Part shown: one piece after another, positions 20,068 to 28,459 of the stretch
Layout: each line of letters starts with the position of its first letter
Position numbering within the stretch: the first letter of the stretch is position 1
Assembly (NCBI GenBank): GCA_028869255.1
Contig: CP110972.1
Span: forward strand, 1,989,001 to 2,053,000
DNA length: 64,000 nucleotides
Source: Pseudomonas poae
Lineage (GTDB): Bacteria > Pseudomonadota > Gammaproteobacteria > Pseudomonadales > Pseudomonadaceae
Reading direction: 5' to 3'
The notes under the pieces: model-generated
The model's database searches: none
Seen by the model: only the letters and a program-made list of their open reading frames with translations
Told to the model about the DNA's origin: nothing
Position numbers and translations under genes: made by a program

Positions 20068-20085
20068 CGACCAACACCCATCAAC

Positions 20086-20174
20086 TGTGGGAGCTGGCTT
20101 GCCTGCGATGGCGGTACATCAGTCAACGTAGTTTTGACTGACAGTCCGCCATCGCAGGCAAGCCAGCGCCTACC
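20086..20174. repeat. REPIN between uvrA-like gene and transketolase
   Basis: TGTGGGAGCTGGCTTGCCTG and its inverted partner (ATCGCAGGCAAGCCAGCGCC, with the outer CTCCCACA degraded to CTACCG) are about 35 bp apart. It lies between two convergent genes and may help end both transcripts. Confidence 0.8.
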
Positions 20175-20177
20175 GTT

Positions 20178-22243
20178 TTATCCGTGTTTATTCAGGTCGA
20201 TTTGCGCCTTGGCTTGCTTCACCACATTCTCCAGCGTAAACCCGAATTGCGCCTGCAGCTTGGCCAGCGGTGCCGATGCGCCAAAACTGCTCATCACCAC
20301 TTTGGCGCCGGTCTGGCCGACATAGCGGTCCCAGCCCAGGGGGCATGCCTGTTCCACCACCACCCGGGCCTTCACGGCCGACGGCAATACGCTGTCGCGG
20401 TAAGCCGGGTCCTGGTCTTCAAACAATTCCCAGCTGGGCATGGACACGACCTGCGCGGCAATCCCCTCGGCTTTCAATTGTTCATAGGCGGCAACGGCGA
20501 GGCTGACTTCACTGCCGGTTGCCAACAGCAACACCTTGGGTGCGTCAGCACTGGCCAACACGTACGCACCCTTGGCCGCACCGGACGCCGCTGCATACTG
20601 CGTACGATCCAGTGTCGGCAACGGCTGGCGCGACAACACCACGCAACTTGGCCGATGGGTTTGTGCCAGGGCGACTTTCCACAGCTCCAGCGTCTCATTG
20701 GCATCGCCTGGGCGCAGGGTCAGCAGCCCCGGTGTGGCGCGCAGTTGGGTTAGATGCTCGATGGGCTGGTGTGTCGGGCCATCTTCACCTACGCCGATTG
20801 AATCGTGGGTAAACACGAATATCACCGGCAACTCCATGATGGCCGCCAGGCGGATCGGCGGTTTCATATAGTCGCTGAACACCAGGAATGTCGAGGTGTA
20901 GGGCCGCAGGTAGGACAGTGCCATGCCATTGGCAATCGCGCCCATGGCGTGTTCACGAATGCCGAAATGCAGATTGCGCCCACTGTAGTCGTCGGCGCTG
21001 AAACGCCCGGCGCCGTCAAAGGTGAGGTTGGTTTTGGTCGAGGGCGACAAGTCCGCCGAGCCGCCGAGCAGCCAGGGGATTTGCTGGGCAAACGCGTTCA
21101 GTACTTCCCCCCGGCAGCACGGCTGGCGACGCCCTTGGCATCGGTGTTGAAGCTGGGCAGGTCATCCTGCCAATGCTCCGGCATTTCCCCGGCGCGCATG
21201 CGCTGCAACTCGTCGGCCAGTTCCGGCTCGTATTGTTCCAGCTGCGACAGGTGTTGGTTCCATGCCTCATACAACGGTCGGCTGCGTTCCAGCAGCGCGT
21301 CCCGCAGTACCGTGCGCGCCTCATCGGGCACCAGGAAACTGGAATCTTCCGGCCAGCCGTACGCGGCTTTGGTCAGGCGAATTTCTTCATCGCCCAACGG
21401 CTCGCCATGGGCGGAGGCAGTGTTGTGCTTGTGCGGCGAACCGTAGCCGATCACGCTGTCGACCACGATCAGGGTCGGCGCGCCGGTGTTGGTCTTGAAG
21501 GTTTCCAGCGCTGCGCTCAGGGCTTGCAAGTCATTTGCATCGGTGACGTGCAAGGTATGCCAGCCATACGCCTCAAAGCGCTTGATCACGTCCTCACTGA
21601 ACGCCAGCTCGGTGTGGCCCTCGATGCTGATGGTGTTGTTGTCGTAGATCCAGCACAGGTTATCCAGCTTCAAGTGCCCGGCCATCGACGCCGCTTCGCT
21701 GCTGATGCCTTCCATCATGTCGCCATCGCCGCACAGGGTATAGACGTTGTAGTCGAACAGCACCTTGCCCTCACGGTTGAAGCGCTTGCCCAGCCAGCGC
21801 TCAGCCATGGCCATGCCCACACTGTTGGCGCAGCCCTGGCCCAGCGGGCCGGTGGTGGTTTCCACGCCGGTGGTCATGCGGTACTCGGGATGGCCCGGCG
21901 TCTTGGAGCCCATCTGCCGGAACTGCTTGATATCGTCCAGGCTGATCGCCGGCTGCCCGGAGCGTTTGCCGTGGGCATCGATCTCGATCACACCCGCCAG
22001 GTGCAACAGCGAATACAGCAGCATCGACGCATGCCCCACCGACAACACAAAGCGGTCACGGTTGGGCCAGTCTGGGTGCTCCGGGTGGTAGCGCAAAAAG
22101 CGGCTCCACAGCGTATACCCCACCGGCGCCAGGCCCATGGGCGTACCTGGGTGGCCGGAATTGGCCTTCTGCACGGCGTCCATGGCCAGGGTGCGAATGG
22201 TGTTGATGCATTGGGTGTCGACAGCAGTGGCCGCGTGAGTCAT
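20178..22243 (-). pseudogene. tkt: Transketolase, frameshifted at a homopolymer
   Basis: The N-terminal frame (22243-21098) carries the ThDP-binding motif GDGDMMEGISSEA ending DNN and the conserved KANSGHPGTPMGLAPV. The C-terminal frame (about 21106-20178) carries FGIREHAMGAIANGMALS and the pyrimidine-binding region. They meet at CCCCCC (21107-21112, plus strand): one more base restores SRAAGGEVLNAFAQQIPW and a 688-residue enzyme. Transketolase moves two-carbon units between sugar phosphates in the pentose phosphate pathway, cytosolic. ATG 22243 has GAGGGAGA upstream. The N-terminus (MTHAATAVDTQCINTIRTLA) differs from the usual Pseudomonas TktA, so this is probably an accessory paralogue. Convergent with uvrA2, divergent from the ydcH-like gene. 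Confidence 0.88.
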
Positions 22244-22417
22244 GAAACCGGTCTCCCTCAGGGTGCGATCTACAGTGGAGGGCAGGGGGCGGCAAAGGTT
22301 TGATCCCATCCCCTGCCGTGCGACGAACGGGGATGGTTTGACCTCAAACATGACAAGACCCCTTGGAATGGGCTAGCTTCAGGGGTGTAGCCATTGATCA
22401 ACTTGCGGAGGTACGTC

Positions 22418-22642
22418 ATGCCGGTGAAACACGACCTGTATCAGGATTTGGGGTTGAGCAAGGAAGTCGTTCACGAACGCAGGGCGAGCGACAAACGTCT
22501 GGACTCGCTGCTCACCCGATACGACGCTGCCGATGGGGAGGTGCTGGAGGCGGAGTCGGCCAAAGCCAGCGATGAGGATGTGGAGAAGCTGAAGAAGAAG
22601 CGCTTGTTGGTCAAAGACGAGATTGTGGCGCGGCTGGGGTAG
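22418..22642 (+). CDS. YdcH-like small protein (DUF465)
   Basis: The 74-residue, highly charged, helical protein (KHDLYQDLGLSKEVVHERRA, EDVEKLKKKRLLVKDEIVARL) fits the YdcH/DUF465 family, cytosolic coiled-coil proteins of unknown function. ATG 22418 has a strong GGAGGT ribosome-binding site; the earlier in-frame start at 22394 does not. It is transcribed divergently from the transketolase gene and followed by a hairpin. Confidence 0.85.
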   Translation: MPVKHDLYQDLGLSKEVVHERRASDKRLDSLLTRYDAADGEVLEAESAKASDEDVEKLKKKRLLVKDEIVARLG

Positions 22643-22751: not shown

Positions 22752-22785
22752 GGCGCAAGGATTGCGCCGGTGAGCCGGGGCGGGC
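22752..22785 (+). repeat. 34-bp direct repeat, copy 1 (right after the cassette 3' end)
   Basis: Identical over 34 bp to 26738-26771, in the same orientation. It contains the hairpin GGCGCAA-GGA-TTGCGCC. This copy lies inside a larger inverted repeat (CCCGCCCACCCGGCTC at 22726-22741 against GAGCCGGGGCGGG). It sits 11 bp beyond the stop of the oxidase gene. Confidence 0.85.
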
Positions 22786-22796
22786 GCTCTCGCTAC

Positions 22797-23963
22797 TCAA
22801 GTGGGCCGAGCATGATTAAAGCGCCCGACTGAAAACGCTGAAAGCGGAACGTTTGGGCGCTGTCCAGTTGCAAGCCTGGCTAAAGCATCACCTATAGCTG
22901 GCGCGAATTTGAAACCGTGGCCTGAGCATGCCGATGCGAAATAAACTGAGTGCAGGTTGTTGGATTTTCCGATCAGGAATGACTCGTCCTTGCTCATGGT
23001 ATAGAGACAGTTCTTAGCTTGAGTAGGTGAATGCTCAAGCTCCGGAAATAGTGACCCAACCGTCGCGACTATTTCGCTCAAATACCTTTTTTCGACGGGA
23101 ACGCTGTCCCAGTCAGGAGCAGTGGGTGTTTGCTGGCGATTATGAAAACCTATTTTGACGCCGGGTTCATTGCTGACAATTGAGGGAACGCCATAAAGGA
23201 GGCCCCCGCCTTCGCACTCGTACAGAAATACGGGAAAGCGCTCCATTGAGAATAAAACTCCTGAAGCGATTTTTGGCGTGAACCAGTATACGGGCACCCG
23301 TCGTGGCTCCAGATAGTCTGAAAGCTCTGGCATGAGGCGGGTGGTTATCCAGGGGCCTGCTGTAACTATCACCGATCTCGCAAAATGAATACGCCCGCTT
23401 TGTGTGGTCACGCACACTCCCTCTGTATGGTTTTCGAGGCTGACGACCGTGTCGCCAAACTCCGTAATGGCTCCAGATCGAACGGCCTCATTCAGCATGC
23501 TCAATCTTGCGTCTCGAGCCGATAACGCATAGGCACCAGGCTCGTATACGGCTTGCATTCCATCTGGCACGTTGAACACCGGGAACGTTTTCCGGAGGGT
23601 TGATGAAGTCCATACCTTGTGTTCAATGTTGCCTGTCCTGGCGGTTTCAATGCTTCCTGCGACCATGCGGCTTGACTCCGGCCCGATGAAAATCCCTCCC
23701 GTGCGCATTAGCAGCTGTTCGTGCGTCACGTGTTCTAATTCATTCCATAATCGGTCTGCGTGGTTGAGCAACGGGAGATATTTTTCGCCTTCCCAATATG
23801 CACGTCGAAAGATTCTTGAGTTTCCCTGTGAGGACCCATAGCTATGAGAGGGGCCTGAGGCATCAATGCCCAAAACGCGAGAACAGAGGGGGGCGGCTCT
23901 CCATAAGGCTGCTGAGCCCATAATTCCAAGCCCAATCACAACAATGTCATAGATGTTTTTCAT
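22797..23963 (-). CDS. FAD-dependent oxidoreductase, monomeric sarcosine oxidase/SolA family
   Basis: The 388-residue protein has an N-terminal FAD-binding GLGIMG (residues 11-16), the family motif SGHGFKFAPAIGD (347-359) and Cys319 in AKNCLYTM, which aligns with the Cys that holds FAD covalently in monomeric sarcosine oxidase and N-methyltryptophan oxidase. Relatives oxidise secondary or N-methyl amino acids to imines with release of H2O2. It is last in a four-gene minus-strand operon and overlaps the EamA gene by 17 bp. With an imine-reductase-like and a methyltransferase-like gene in the same operon, the substrate may be an N-methylated or cyclic amino acid; this is inference. Confidence 0.85.
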   Translation of the reverse strand: MKNIYDIVVIGLGIMGSAALWRAAPLCSRVLGIDASGPSHSYGSSQGNSRIFRRAYWEGEKYLPLLNHADRLWNELEHVTHEQLLMRTGGIFIGPESSRMVAGSIETARTGNIEHKVWTSSTLRKTFPVFNVPDGMQAVYEPGAYALSARDARLSMLNEAVRSGAITEFGDTVVSLENHTEGVCVTTQSGRIHFARSVIVTAGPWITTRLMPELSDYLEPRRVPVYWFTPKIASGVLFSMERFPVFLYECEGGGLLYGVPSIVSNEPGVKIGFHNRQQTPTAPDWDSVPVEKRYLSEIVATVGSLFPELEHSPTQAKNCLYTMSKDESFLIGKSNNLHSVYFASACSGHGFKFAPAIGDALARLATGQRPNVPLSAFSVGRFNHARPT

Positions 23964-24870
23964 TGTATTTTTTTCTTGTTGGCCGTTGTGGATTTATGAG
24001 GTCGTAAATAATAAGGGTAATCAATAGGCCGGCTGTTGAAATAATTAAAGTTAATGAAGTATTGGATATTTCTTGTGTGCGTAGCAATAGCGCCAAAGTA
24101 AATAGTGTGAGGGGCAGCATGAACTGTATAAAGCCGGTTAAAGAAAGCGGTATTTTTCCGGTGGCGTATGAAAACATCAGTAAAGGGACGATGGACACCC
24201 CGCCCGCGAGCCAAATCAAATAACTTGATTGGGTAGGCAGTTCGGAAGGCCAGGCAACAGGGAGTTCAAATAGGGTCATCGCCAATGCCAGGCACGCGGT
24301 CAGAAATAGTGTTTCTATAAGTAAGCCGTTTATCGCATCTAAAGAGGTTGATTTTTTTATATAAGTGTAGGCGCCCCACGTCGAGGCAATGAGTAGATAG
24401 GTCAGGTGGTTCAGGTGTTTTGTAGATATTATCAATACGGCAATGGCGCCAAAGGCAACGGCGGTCGATACTGTTTTTCTTGCGACCATGGGCTCGCGGT
24501 AAACCACCGCGCCAAGTACGACCGAGATGAACGGCGCTAGCAGGTATCCAAGCCCACTCTCCAATAGGTATCCGTTAATTGACGCCCAGATAAAGGCTCC
24601 CCAGTTGATAGCGATGAGGATGGACGCAATGGAGTGCAGGCAGATGAGCTTTATTGTGTAATGCTTTATCTGGTTTGCACGTCGAAAAATGAGAATAAAA
24701 AAGGTCAGTATAAGCGCGGAAAGTACAACTCGATAAGCGACCAGTGTTGTGGATGAGATTTCACCCAGTGTACGCCAATAAAGCGATGAAATCCCCAGAA
24801 GAACGTTTGCCAATCCGGACAGGATGATTGAAAAATAGTCGGGGAGAAAACTGTTTTGCAGCGATCTCAT
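23947..24870 (-). CDS. EamA/DMT family transporter
   Basis: The 307-residue, strongly hydrophobic protein has about ten predicted membrane segments in two halves, as in drug/metabolite transporters of the EamA family, and a basic C-terminal tail (NPQRPTRKKYNEKHL). Members usually export amino acids or related metabolites across the inner membrane. ATG 24870 overlaps the methyltransferase stop as ATGA; an earlier ATG at 24882 is less likely. Its place between two amino-acid-modifying enzymes suggests that it exports the pathway product. Visibly AT-richer than the surrounding chromosome. Confidence 0.85.
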   Translation of the reverse strand: MRSLQNSFLPDYFSIILSGLANVLLGISSLYWRTLGEISSTTLVAYRVVLSALILTFFILIFRRANQIKHYTIKLICLHSIASILIAINWGAFIWASINGYLLESGLGYLLAPFISVVLGAVVYREPMVARKTVSTAVAFGAIAVLIISTKHLNHLTYLLIASTWGAYTYIKKSTSLDAINGLLIETLFLTACLALAMTLFELPVAWPSELPTQSSYLIWLAGGVSIVPLLMFSYATGKIPLSLTGFIQFMLPLTLFTLALLLRTQEISNTSLTLIISTAGLLITLIIYDLINPQRPTRKKYNEKHL

Positions 24871-25736
24871 GTGCGGTGCCACAGTGTGCTATGGGAAAAT
24901 TCAATGATTTCATATGACCAATAAATATTTCCGCATTGATCGGTGGCGTAATCAGCTAGATCTTGCTTTGCTAGATTTTCGAACTCGTTTTTTAAGGAGT
25001 TGCTTAGCCGGTGCCAATCGTGTGTATAGTAAAGAAGTGGAAAGGTATGGCGCTCCACTAGTTTATATATTAATGGTGGGGTGTTTTTGTGTTTTTGATT
25101 GTATCTGTTCAATAGGTCATGTATTCCTATCAGGGAGTTGAGTCCTACGATTGCCCGTCCTCTGGGCGCGAGATATTTTGGAAGGTCTTCCAGAAAGCGA
25201 CTAACTACCTCCTCGCCATAGAACATCGAAGAAATAGGCATTTGCCCAGACTGAGAGGGCATTTCCAACTTTTGAATAAGCGCGCTTGAGGGGGTCCGCC
25301 AACCAGGTGGGTTGAAGGTGATTGTTTGAAATTGTCTATCAGTGAAACTTTCGAACAAGTCGCTGACAGAAAAATTAATGGTGCCTTGTTCGAAATTTAT
25401 ACGTTCGTGGATTTTTGCCTGTGCAATAGACTCTTGGGAGATGTCGCTGGCATTCACGTCACTATTGCCAAGCCTACGCATTAACAACGCATGGACACCG
25501 CTGCCCGTTCCAATATCCAAAAAACTTTTATTTAAAGTTTCACGGGTGGCTGATTGCACCAGATAATTGCCAAGCCTAAGGCCTGCAAGACTGACTTTGA
25601 ATACATTGGGTATGTTGATCAGTTTCAGGCTATGGCCTAGCCCAAAGTAGACTTTGTAGGTGTCGTCCGCGCTGTTCGCGTATTCATTCGTTAGATGATG
25701 TTTTCCAGCCATTCCGTGGTCGAGTAATCCGCGCAT
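24867..25736 (-). CDS. SAM-dependent methyltransferase, HemK/PrmC-like N-methyltransferase type
   Basis: The 289-residue protein has the Rossmann SAM-binding motif LDIGTGSGV (about 73-81), an acidic motif II region (NASDISQESI) and FNPPGW (141-146). The NPP(Y/G) tetrad is characteristic of methyltransferases acting on planar nitrogens (amides, amino groups of bases). No PrmC-type substrate domain is recognised, so the substrate is probably a small molecule or peptide. ATG 25736 lies 2 bp after the upstream gene and has a strong GGAAGGAGG site inside it. Low GC and ATA/AGA-type codons are consistent with acquisition from elsewhere. Exact reaction unknown. Confidence 0.8.
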   Translation of the reverse strand: MRGLLDHGMAGKHHLTNEYANSADDTYKVYFGLGHSLKLINIPNVFKVSLAGLRLGNYLVQSATRETLNKSFLDIGTGSGVHALLMRRLGNSDVNASDISQESIAQAKIHERINFEQGTINFSVSDLFESFTDRQFQTITFNPPGWRTPSSALIQKLEMPSQSGQMPISSMFYGEEVVSRFLEDLPKYLAPRGRAIVGLNSLIGIHDLLNRYNQKHKNTPPLIYKLVERHTFPLLYYTHDWHRLSNSLKNEFENLAKQDLADYATDQCGNIYWSYEIIEFSHSTLWHRT

Positions 25737-25738
25737 GT

Positions 25739-26545
25739 CTAAGACCTCCTTCCCAATTCTTCCGCACGTAGGCGAGCGTGTTTGAGACCGATCACAATAG
25801 TGGCCCGCACCTGTTTGCGATTAAAGAAATTAATTGCCTGCTCCGTGGTTCCTTTAGCCGTCATCACGTGTTCGCAAAGTCTCATGGGGGGCTCACGGTT
25901 TTTATCTAACAGGGCAGCCGTCCCTCGCAATAGTTGAGTGACCATTAACGTGGCGTCTGTTTTATCAAAGCCGGAAAGTAGAGCGTACTCTATGAGGGCG
26001 GCCGCAAAATATGAAATATAAGCAGGACCTCCGCCAATCAGCGCGGTGGCATCATCAATAAGTCGCTCATTTTCTATGCTGATAAACAGGCCGAGTCTCG
26101 AAAACAAGTCTCGAACTAGAATGTTGTTTTTCTGGGTGGCCTCAGGTGCGAAGATCAAAACGGTCACGCCTTGGCTAACGGCGCAGGGCAGGTTCGGCAT
26201 TGCTCGGCATACTTGTGATACCTTCAGTCGGCTTATCAGTTCTGACAGGTTTATTCCTGCCATGACAGAGATAATTATCCCCGTGTAATATTCAAGCTGC
26301 GGGTTGTCTTTTGAAAATCGCCCAAAAGCTTGGGGTGGGATTGCTATTATTATGGCTTCTGAGGTTAATGGGTTGGGTAGGTGTTCTGTCGTTGATATGC
26401 CTGCATTGATTAATACATTCCGGCGAGTAATGTCCGGATCCACCATCTGTAACGCTATCGTTGGGCTGGATGCTTTTAGTCCCATGGCAATAGCACTGCC
26501 CATTGGGCCTGCACCAATAATCACGGCACTCTTTATTACTGTCAT
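25739..26545 (-). CDS. Pyrroline-5-carboxylate reductase-like protein
   Basis: The 268-residue protein fits the ProC family: Rossmann motif IIGAGPMGSAIA (9-20), RAMPNLP (114-120), GGGPAYISYF (171-180) and the C-terminal helical dimer domain with TAKGTTEQAI (229-238). Deviations from housekeeping ProC include GGGPAY for GSGPAY and AKGTT for PGGTT, so it may reduce a related cyclic imine rather than P5C. It has a strong GGAGGTG ribosome-binding site located inside an overlapping 36-codon micro-ORF. It heads the four-gene cassette. The usual proC neighbours (yggS, yggT) are absent, supporting a specialised role. Confidence 0.85.
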   Translation of the reverse strand: MTVIKSAVIIGAGPMGSAIAMGLKASSPTIALQMVDPDITRRNVLINAGISTTEHLPNPLTSEAIIIAIPPQAFGRFSKDNPQLEYYTGIIISVMAGINLSELISRLKVSQVCRAMPNLPCAVSQGVTVLIFAPEATQKNNILVRDLFSRLGLFISIENERLIDDATALIGGGPAYISYFAAALIEYALLSGFDKTDATLMVTQLLRGTAALLDKNREPPMRLCEHVMTAKGTTEQAINFFNRKQVRATIVIGLKHARLRAEELGRRS

Positions 26546-26652
26546 AGCACCTCCAGTTCGACAACAATGTCGTTGCGCGTCGGATGTGCATCAGCTTCGT
26601 GTCGAATTGGATTTATTTCAAACCATTGGTTTCTGAAAACCACGTAGTCCAT
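26542..26652 (-). CDS. Putative 36-residue micro-ORF overlapping the cassette start
   Basis: I read this frame by hand. ATG 26652 begins MDYVVFRNQWFEINPIRH and ends VVELEVL, with its TGA overlapping the next ATG as ATGA. The ribosome-binding site of the P5C-reductase-like gene lies inside its last codons. Its own ribosome-binding site is weak (AACAGAA). It could be a leader for translational coupling, a small peptide product or substrate of the pathway, or a chance frame; 37 open codons alone prove nothing. No family is recognised. Confidence 0.35.
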   Translation of the reverse strand: MDYVVFRNQWFEINPIRHEADAHPTRNDIVVELEVL

Positions 26653-26737
26653 TTCTGTTGGTTTATTCAGTGGGGTAACTGATCACGCCGCAGCTTGTTT
26701 TTGGAAGTTGAAAGAAGCCATCACCCGCTTTGTCTCT

Positions 26738-26771
26738 GGCGCAAGGATTGCGCCGGTGAGCCGGGGCGGGC
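26738..26771 (+). repeat. 34-bp direct repeat, copy 2 (between cassette promoter region and hglS)
   Basis: Identical to 22752-22785 and in the same orientation. It lies 22 bp past the hglS stop. Together the copies bracket the micro-ORF and all four cassette genes. Confidence 0.85.
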
Positions 26772-26793: not shown

Positions 26794-28170
26794 TTACACC
26801 AGCAGCGTTTTGATGCACTCATCCATTGAGCGCTGCTGCGTCTCGTCATACAGCTTCAGCTCATCAATCGTCTGGCGCCCCAGCGCTTGCTCGAATTCGG
26901 CCTGGTTCGAATTGGCCGCGTAGTGACTCTGCGCCGCATCCCCCAGGTTCGACTGAAAAATCCCCGCTGCGCTTACCGGCAGAAAATCTTCATACACCAA
27001 GGGTTCCACGTCCACGTGGCCGGCTGCGATCAGTGCCTGCAGTGTGCGTGGCTGATCGGTCTGGCCGCGTGCCGCCAGGCCCTTTTGCGTGGTGAAGTAG
27101 CGGAAGTAGGCCAGGCCCTGTTCGCGCATCTGCGTGTGGTTATCCGGGAAGGCCTGGAAGTGATGCTCCATCAATTGCATATAGCGCGTGGCGTTGCCTT
27201 CATTGGGGAAGGCGCCCAGTGCATCGCGAGCGGCGTTCAGCAGTTGGTCGTAGAGGGCGCGGCCCTTGGGGGTGAGGGCGACGCCGCGTTGTTCGATTTC
27301 GCCGAAGCGCGCACTGTGGCTGCCCTGGGCGTCGGTGAAGGCGATGGGCTCGTCGAGGGCCTTGAAGCTGGTCTGGCGCAGCAGGATCGGGCAATGGCGG
27401 CGGGGTGGCCCCTCGATTACGGCCTTGGGGGTGATGCCTTTGCCGGGCATGGCGGCCTGCACCTGGTCGATGTCCAGGGTGCGTGGCGTCAGGTGGTTGA
27501 TATGCGGGCCCTTGAAGGCCACCACGTCGGCGATCAGGCGGTGCTGGTCGCTGAGCTGCTGGTACTGCGCGCCGGTGACGGTGGCGGTGTGATGCCAGCG
27601 AAAGGTTTCCAGGGCCTGGCGGATAAATTCCTCGGCATCCTGGGCGTCAAGGCCGTGGTCCTTTTCCGCTTTTTCGATCAGTGCAAGCGCGCCCGGGGTG
27701 AAGATCGAGCGCTTGGCCAAGGCGGTTTCGGCGAAGGCGCGTAGCTCCGGGTTTTCGATCAGTTCCAGACGCAGCAATGAGGTGAACACGCGAAACGGGC
27801 TGGTTTGCAGCGAGCGCTCATGCACGGCGCGAAAGGCGGTGGAATGCACCGGCACACCGGCCGGGGTCAGGTCGTAGTAGCCCACTGGTTGCATGCCCAT
27901 CACCGCAAACAGGCGGCTGATGGTCGACAGTTCTGCAGCCGTGCCCAGGCGGATGGCGCCATGGCGTTCCATGTCCAGGCGCTGGATTTCGCCGGTGCGC
28001 TGCAGCTGTCGCGCCAGGGCAGGTTCAGCCTCGAGTACGCGGGTGTTGGTCTCGGCCACCAACTCCATCAGCGCGCCATACAACGGAACTTCATCTCGGT
28101 ACATGTCGGACATGGCCTTGGAAAAGCCCTTGCGGATCTCATCGGGGCTGACATGTGCGGTGGTGTGCAT
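26794..28170 (-). CDS. hglS: 2-oxoadipate dioxygenase/decarboxylase (HglS, DUF1338, YdcJ-like)
   Basis: The 458-residue protein belongs to the DUF1338 family whose Pseudomonas putida member HglS converts 2-oxoadipate to D-2-hydroxyglutarate in D-lysine catabolism, using Fe(II) and O2. Counting from ATG 28170, His70 (ERHGAIR, with Arg74), His226 (HINHLTPR) and the Glu of GEIEQRG (291 or 293) match the reported metal ligands and substrate Arg to within a residue, which supports this start. AGGAA precedes it. An extension to 28302 lacks a ribosome-binding site. The divergent gene is an OprD porin. No other lysine-pathway gene is in the window. Confidence 0.88.
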   Translation of the reverse strand: MHTTAHVSPDEIRKGFSKAMSDMYRDEVPLYGALMELVAETNTRVLEAEPALARQLQRTGEIQRLDMERHGAIRLGTAAELSTISRLFAVMGMQPVGYYDLTPAGVPVHSTAFRAVHERSLQTSPFRVFTSLLRLELIENPELRAFAETALAKRSIFTPGALALIEKAEKDHGLDAQDAEEFIRQALETFRWHHTATVTGAQYQQLSDQHRLIADVVAFKGPHINHLTPRTLDIDQVQAAMPGKGITPKAVIEGPPRRHCPILLRQTSFKALDEPIAFTDAQGSHSARFGEIEQRGVALTPKGRALYDQLLNAARDALGAFPNEGNATRYMQLMEHHFQAFPDNHTQMREQGLAYFRYFTTQKGLAARGQTDQPRTLQALIAAGHVDVEPLVYEDFLPVSAAGIFQSNLGDAAQSHYAANSNQAEFEQALGRQTIDELKLYDETQQRSMDECIKTLLV

Positions 28171-28459
28171 AGAAAAATTCCTGATGGCTGGGGCGGTGAT
28201 GGTGGCCTCTTTGCGGATTTTGTTGAGCGCCAGGCCAGCTTGCAAACGAAGATTCCTCTGGACTTCATTCTGCAAATGAATGAGATGACCTGAATATGAC
28301 AAAAATCAGCCATCTGGAAATTTCATTTTTCGGGGTTTTTCCTAACTAATTCTTCACGGAGCAAGCCCCGGTCGGCATGAAAGAATCGTCACGTTCGCAA
28401 GGATGAAAACGTCGTTTCGCAGATCGCACACATAAAAATATGTTTAGGGGCCGTCGTTA

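What the first reader, a model, noticed from the sequence alone, without database searches (positions are those of the whole stretch)
22752..26771. Low-GC, repeat-bracketed four-gene cassette: possible undescribed amino-acid-modifying pathway with its own exporter
Seen: four minus-strand genes with 2-bp spacing or overlap (ATGA, 17 bp) encode a P5C-reductase-like, an NPPG-motif methyltransferase, an EamA transporter and a sarcosine-oxidase-like enzyme with its flavin Cys. The block is visibly AT-richer than both flanks and lies between identical 34-bp repeats. Known: these families act on amino acids, imines or N-methyl groups. Inferred: reduction of a cyclic imine, N-methylation, flavin oxidation and export of one small product. 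I do not know this gene combination from a described pathway.
Basis: partly seen in the sequence, partly recalled or inferred. Interest (0 to 1): 0.75.

Follow-up and report, generated by a model that had tools for sequence, protein, structure and literature searches.

The report
Four-gene amino-acid-modifying cassette in Pseudomonas
A compact run of four genes, kept in the same order in scattered Pseudomonas genomes, looks like an undescribed mini-pathway that methylates, oxidises and reduces an amino acid and exports the product; its chemistry has not been tested.

Summary
Four minus-strand genes (22797-26545) encode a ProC paralogue, an N-methyltransferase-fold enzyme, a RarD/EamA-like transporter and a sarcosine/N-methyltryptophan oxidase homologue. 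GC is 48% against 62% for the rest of the window; the 34-bp repeat occurs twice in the 6.8-Mb genome. The repeat is part of the hairpin found after hglS in cassette-free relatives, duplicated around the cassette; no integrase or transposase lies between. The methyltransferase is in 21 of 398 genus genomes; the four genes keep their order in 20 of these 21 loci (in one the contig ends), at hglS in 11, elsewhere in 9, unresolved in 1. Only 15 of 64 genomes with a close hglS carry it. Trees, dS and dN/dS indicate long residence under purifying selection. A conserved 65-bp element precedes the operon in 14 of 20 loci examined. Some distant methyltransferase relatives appear to share contigs with oxidase relatives. 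Best reading: a small specialised-metabolite pathway using N-methylation, flavin oxidation to an imine, reduction and export. Substrate, product, step order and transport direction are unknown. The literature searches run showed no described cluster with this combination.

The parts
25739..26545 (-). P5C-reductase (ProC) paralogue, 268 aa, first gene of the operon
   Evidence: PF14748; TIGR00112 176 bits, below its 196.75 cut-off; 27.8% identical to the genome's own ProC, which scores 262 bits; keeps the GTT motif
24867..25736 (-). Methyltransferase of the HemK2/PrmC fold class with NPPGW motif, 289 aa
23947..24882 (-). RarD-like EamA/DMT transporter, 311 aa from the first start codon
   Evidence: TIGR00688 107 bits, below cut-off 130
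22797..23963 (-). FAD oxidase of the monomeric sarcosine / N-methyltryptophan oxidase family, 388 aa
   Evidence: NF008425 343 bits, above cut-off 257; MSOX R49, R52, K265, H269, C315, K348 positions kept in 16 of 16 full-length copies
26591..26655 (-). Conserved upstream element, presumed promoter/operator
   Evidence: found in 14 of 20 loci examined; one copy in the genome
22752..22785 (+). 34-bp repeat, copy 1, inside a complete two-tier hairpin after DAO
26738..26771 (+). 34-bp repeat, copy 2, left arm and inner stem only, between hglS and the cassette
26794..28302 (-). hglS, flank that marks the site
   Evidence: PF07063, NF049974 above cut-off
22394..22642 (+). DUF465 (ydcH-like) gene, other flank
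   Evidence: PF04325

Best explanation
An optional, self-contained operon for a small specialised metabolite. MT puts a methyl group on a nitrogen of an amino-acid-like substrate; the oxidase, which keeps the carboxylate-binding and oxygen-activating positions of N-methyl-amino-acid oxidases, oxidises the N-alkyl carbon to a reactive imine that can be trapped in a ring; the ProC paralogue reduces a cyclic imino acid with NAD(P)H; the EamA protein exports the product, perhaps an antimetabolite or signal. Shown here: conservation as one unit, purifying selection, a shared upstream element, residue retention, fold class. Inferred: each chemical step, their order, the substrate, the direction of transport and the role.
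For: Same four genes in the same order in 20 of 21 loci, at hglS and elsewhere. dN/dS 0.18-0.23 between window and L029. Upstream element in 14 of 20 loci. MT fold and family profile match mainly N-methyltransferases (N6AMT1, PrmC, AerE, Asc-Orf2, gentamicin N-3''), with some RNA and carbon methyltransferases further down. Oxidase residues kept in 16 of 16 full-length copies. Cassette P5CRs keep GTT in 9 of 9 aligned, the threonines that PMC12899673 has contacting carboxylate and amino group (passages); a separate proC exists. 24 of the 80 more distant listed MT hits have the same longest-contig length as a listed oxidase hit. Precedent for an oxidase of this family turning an N-methyl group into a ring: FsqB (PMC6222107, passages).
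Against: No substrate-forming or regulatory gene is shared by the clusters that I compared, so the substrate would have to come from general metabolism. The oxidase could simply N-demethylate. The oxidase is split or a fragment in 4 of 21 loci, and dN/dS in the pair L031/L032 is higher (0.28-0.45, partly on fragments), so parts may be dispensable in some strains. Equal contig lengths are indirect. The Methylobacterium copy has no RarD between MT and the partial oxidase.
Confidence: 0.5

Rival explanations
1. Oxidise, C-methylate, reduce: the oxidase makes a cyclic imine from an imino acid, MT methylates the enamine carbon, the P5CR-like enzyme reduces it, giving a beta-methylated proline or pipecolate analogue for export.
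For: Explains why an oxidase and a reductase for the same bond type share an operon; GTT and carboxylate positions are kept.
Against: The nearest MT folds are mainly N-methyltransferases and an NPP motif is kept.
Confidence: 0.15
2. Detoxification or catabolism: the cassette inactivates or uses an N-methylated or cyclic amino acid, and the EamA protein imports or expels it.
For: The oxidase passes the N-methyl-L-tryptophan oxidase model, an activity that demethylates (recalled); presence is patchy and some copies are broken.
Against: A SAM-consuming methyltransferase and an imine reductase are odd in a degradative operon (inference).
Confidence: 0.2
3. Opine-type metallophore: MT is an aminocarboxypropyl transferase, P5CR stands in for the opine dehydrogenase, EamA exports.
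For: Opine zincophore clusters pair a SAM enzyme, a dehydrogenase and often an EamA exporter (PMC7438024, passages).
Against: None of the four proteins matches nicotianamine-synthase or opine-dehydrogenase models at E 0.001; there is an extra flavin oxidase.
Confidence: 0.04
4. Four unrelated genes that travel together by chance.
For: Some copies are broken; a transporter-only remnant exists.
Against: Order is kept at 33-95% protein identity to the window and over several sites, with tight spacing.
Confidence: 0.03

Closest known systems
Fumisoquin pathway oxidase FsqB (Aspergillus fumigatus)
   Same: Sarcosine-oxidase-family flavoenzyme acting on N-methyl amino acids inside a biosynthetic cluster (PMC6222107, passages; PMC11475575, start of abstract)
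   Different: Fungal; the rest of that cluster was not compared here; a ProC-like reductase or RarD is not known to me there (recalled)
Reductasporine RedE/RedM
   Same: Imine reductase followed by an N-methyltransferase as tailoring pair (PMC10784701, passages)
   Different: Acts on an indolocarbazole; RedM is discussed there among COMT-type enzymes, whereas MT here is of the HemK2 fold class
Opine zincophore clusters (cnt type)
   Same: SAM enzyme, dehydrogenase and EamA exporter in one cluster (PMC7438024, passages)
   Different: Different enzyme families and an extra flavin oxidase
ProC
   Same: Fold family and GTT motif
   Different: 27.8% identical to the resident ProC; in the 9 aligned copies GSGPA is GGGPA, VKPQ is [IV]PPQ and the Ser231 position is Thr
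N-methyltryptophan oxidase / monomeric sarcosine oxidase
   Same: Family model, flavin Cys, carboxylate and oxygen positions
   Different: MSOX His44 is Ser in 16 of 16; His45 is Gln, His or Tyr in 7, 6 and 3 of 16; linked to a methyltransferase gene

Membership tests
ProC (P5C reductase of proline synthesis) | Score above the NCBIfam equivalog cut-off | tested here: not met
   176 bits against 196.75; resident ProC 262 bits
ProC (P5C reductase of proline synthesis) | GTT substrate-contact motif | tested here: met
   9 of 9 cassette copies aligned (9 of the 21 loci were aligned)
N-methyltryptophan oxidase / MSOX family | Score above the NF008425 cut-off | tested here: met
   343 against 257 bits, window copy only
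N-methyltryptophan oxidase / MSOX family | Flavin Cys, O2-site Lys, carboxylate Arg/Lys | tested here: met
   C315, K265, R52, K348 positions in 16 of 16 full-length copies
N-methyltryptophan oxidase / MSOX family | Oxidises N-methyl amino acids | not testable with these tools
   needs an assay
HemK2/PrmC-type N-methyltransferases | Fold | tested here: met
HemK2/PrmC-type N-methyltransferases | NPPY motif and PrmC equivalog score | tested here: not met
   NPPG; TIGR03534 42 bits against 199
RarD | Score above the TIGR00688 cut-off | tested here: not met
   107 against 130 bits
Opine zincophore cluster | Nicotianamine-synthase-like and opine-dehydrogenase genes | tested here: not met
   none among the four proteins at E 0.001
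Integrative mobile element or transposon | Integrase or transposase between the repeats | tested here: not met
   the four genes fill the interval and none matches such a family

The most novel reading that the evidence does not exclude
A minimal biosynthetic cassette without a peptide or polyketide synthetase, in which N-methylation followed by flavin oxidation of that methyl group builds a new ring on an amino acid, the ProC paralogue fixes the imine and a dedicated EamA protein exports it: a bacterial counterpart of fungal FsqB chemistry, with a reductase-methyltransferase-oxidase core that reaches beyond Pseudomonas.
Probability: 0.25. Interest if true: 0.7.

Novelty: new variant of a known kind. 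Interest (0 to 1): 0.5.

Why it matters
It points to a new exported small molecule, probably an unusual amino acid, made by a unit small enough to rebuild in one cloning step. Mining tools built around peptide or polyketide synthetases would be expected to miss it (inference, not tested). Related genomes with and without the cassette at the same site give ready comparisons.

Tried and rejected
A 36-codon ORF ending at the P5CR start (WFEINP) looked like a precursor peptide. Rejected: L029 has a stop at the W codon, and the L030 frame printed holds no Met. Rfam had only one match near there, 15 bits against a gathering score of 49.5. The isonitrile-synthase-family gene near the Methylobacterium nodulans copy (L049) was not taken as part of the pathway: the oxidase there is a partial ORF, and I read the stretch between as insertion-sequence debris by eye. 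Defence systems: one generic hit of MT to mad2 (38 bits), not followed. Viral contigs: no relative. Wider sampling: of 398 phylum genomes 2 had a hit, both in the genus; 0 of 349 genomes of the order of G786, the Burkholderiales genome of L007 (the tool warns that an empty answer without a positive control shows nothing, and named Burkholderiales relatives do appear). Plasmids: 1 record. Literature: searches returned none; others (10 papers; 170, 20 listed; 11; 9, 8 listed; 181, 15 listed; 4) were seen as listings with the starts of abstracts, and showed no such cluster; four of those papers were then opened, passages or one section only. Whether MT is an azetidine synthase (AzeJ type, recalled) was not tested; none stands under that name in the 50 rows shown.
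Full report
What is there. Four minus-strand genes lie between two identical 34-bp repeats, spaced +2, -16 (ATGA if the internal ATG is used) and -17 nt. The products are a ProC paralogue, a methyltransferase, a RarD-like EamA transporter and an FAD oxidase of the sarcosine / N-methyltryptophan oxidase family. Cassette GC is 0.479 against 0.618 for the window outside the repeats; the four lowest of 64 one-kb bins are in the cassette (profile). The repeat is found twice in the genome and at no third place with up to 3 mismatches.

Distribution. MT was found at E <= 1e-30 in 21 of 398 genus genomes, the window's own included. I fetched the 20 others. All four families are detectable in the same order in 19 of the 20; in the other, L044, the contig ends in the methyltransferase. 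With the window this is 20 of 21. The cassette is at hglS in 11 of 21 (L044 judged by hglS alone), elsewhere in 9, and L042 is on a 7.7-kb contig and unresolved. In 15 of 21 each gene is one ORF (the L039 reductase has 241 codons, the L033 transporter 265). The oxidase is split or a fragment in L030, L031, L032 and L038; the L032 reductase is half length, the L042 methyltransferase is split, and the L044 reductase is short. Many of these are draft assemblies, so sequencing error is not excluded. Of 398 phylum genomes 2 had a hit, both in the genus; of 349 genomes in the order of G786 none did. A Methylobacterium nodulans plasmid has the reductase and methyltransferase side by side and a partial oxidase ORF downstream, with no RarD between. 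In the protein database, 24 of the 80 methyltransferase hits listed as P0041-P0120 have the same longest-contig length as one of the 120 listed oxidase hits, with Bordetella ansorpii and Polyangium fumosum named in both lists; 0 of 80 match one of the 120 listed transporter hits. The 80 include a few Pseudomonas and many unnamed sources, only the best 120 of each search are listed, and in L043 and L045-L048 a transporter of 38-41% identity is present, so the zero does not show that distant clusters lack an exporter.

Insertion site. 64 of 398 genus genomes have a close hglS (E <= 1e-250); 15 of these carry the cassette, 11 of them at hglS and 4 elsewhere. Of the 53 without a cassette at hglS I examined 21: 20 fetched, chosen from the best hglS matches and including the four that carry the cassette elsewhere, and G017. 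One contig ends too early (L117). Of the other 20, 18 have hglS and DUF465 148-266 bp apart, 17 of them with one recognisable hairpin copy and one (L128) with none; G017 has one copy and a 2-kb insert with a 423-codon ORF that I read as an MFS-like transporter; G320 (L116) has two copies around a transporter-only remnant. The G017 hairpin folds at -41.8 kcal/mol (z -4.3). In the window the copy after the oxidase is a complete two-tier hairpin (-41.9, z -2.9), and the copy after hglS keeps only the left arm and inner stem (-21.5, z -1.4). Two copies also flank the cassette in L029, L030 and L034; within each genome the copies are identical or nearly so, while L030, L034 and the window/L029 pair differ from each other. 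L031 and L032 have a full copy on the oxidase side and, by eye, a piece of the left arm next to hglS; L035 and L038 show one copy, on the hglS side; L039 and L041 none. So the cassette sits in or beside the hglS hairpin, often with part of it duplicated. Separate insertions, gene conversion between the copies, and loss by recombination between them are all possible; the empty sites do not tell gain from loss.

Age and selection. The pairs window+L029, L031+L032 and L035+L038 are supported in the MT, transporter and HglS trees; L039+L041 is strong in the HglS and transporter trees but weak for MT (82/54). The off-site copies L033, L036, L037 and L040 group at 85/92 in the MT tree; in the transporter tree only L033+L036 is supported and the other two are unresolved. 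Between the window and L029, dS is 0.14-0.28 in the cassette and 0.16-0.21 in hglS and transketolase; dN/dS is 0.18-0.23 in the cassette and 0.10-0.12 in the flanks. Other pairs: 0.12-0.23 (L035/L038), 0.10-0.11 (L047/L048), and 0.28-0.45 (L031/L032, whose reductase and oxidase values rest on fragments, as does the L035/L038 oxidase). GC per cassette gene is 0.53-0.59 in L046-L048 and 0.37-0.54 in the other loci, so low GC is a property of a lineage, not a clock.

Upstream element. A motif GAA-N5-CTAC-N5-TTT starts a conserved block of about 65 bp, 90-123 bp before the reductase start, in 14 of the 20 loci examined (window, L029-L031, L033-L041, L044), off-site copies included; L042, L043 and L045-L048 lack it. 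The motif was derived from 13 of these loci before the count. L032 was left out of the count, but one search prints the same block there. It has one match in the genome, at 2 mismatches. I read it as a promoter or operator.

Enzymes. The nine cassette reductases aligned keep the GTT whose threonines contact carboxylate and amine in ProC according to PMC12899673 (passages and one section), but differ at GSGPA, VKPQ and the Ser231 position. The genome has a separate ProC above the equivalog cut-off. The oxidase keeps the MSOX R49, R52, K265, H269, C315 and K348 positions in 16 of 16 full-length copies; four loci with fragments and L044 were left out. The roles of these residues are recalled, except that Lys265 as oxygen site stands in a reference title seen. 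MT has no PDB relative by single-sequence search at E 0.001; its profile and model match mainly N-methyltransferases, natural-product ones included. In 68 aligned sequences N142, P144, G145 and W146 are invariant and P143 nearly so.

Interpretation. The residues point to amino-acid or cyclic imino-acid substrates, the fold to N-methylation, the oxidase family to oxidation of an N-alkyl amino acid. FsqB shows that an enzyme of this oxidase family can turn an N-methyl group into a ring (PMC6222107, passages); RedE/RedM show imine reduction followed by N-methylation (PMC10784701, passages). I favour a small exported metabolite made by methylation, oxidation and reduction, order unknown. That the oxidase is the gene most often broken means it may be dispensable or late. 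Novelty rests on the searches listed under Tried and rejected, in an open-licence library that lacks most subscription journals.

Noticed in passing
window 20178-22351: The transketolase gene is two ORFs (290 and 417 codons, minus strand) here but one of 686-735 codons in the relatives compared: a frameshift or sequencing error near 21050-21098.
   Followed up: no
window 20083-20177: Inverted pair of 44-nt arms, 84% complementary, beside the transketolase gene; looks like a REP-type element (the type is recalled).
   Followed up: no
L078:5457-7421 and L116:1017-2681: The hglS/DUF465 gap holds other inserts: an MFS-like ORF in G017 and a transporter-only remnant of the cassette in G320.
   Followed up: partly
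L049:11030-16565: On the Methylobacterium nodulans plasmid the reductase and methyltransferase stand near an isonitrile-synthase-family gene.
   Followed up: partly
L047:11834-12931 and L048 near 12019: Related ORFs just upstream of the cassette in both loci; the L047 one looks like a LysR regulator (by eye). Both loci lack the conserved upstream element.
   Followed up: no
L030, L031, L032, L038: The oxidase is the most often broken gene of the cassette, 4 of 21 loci.
   Followed up: no
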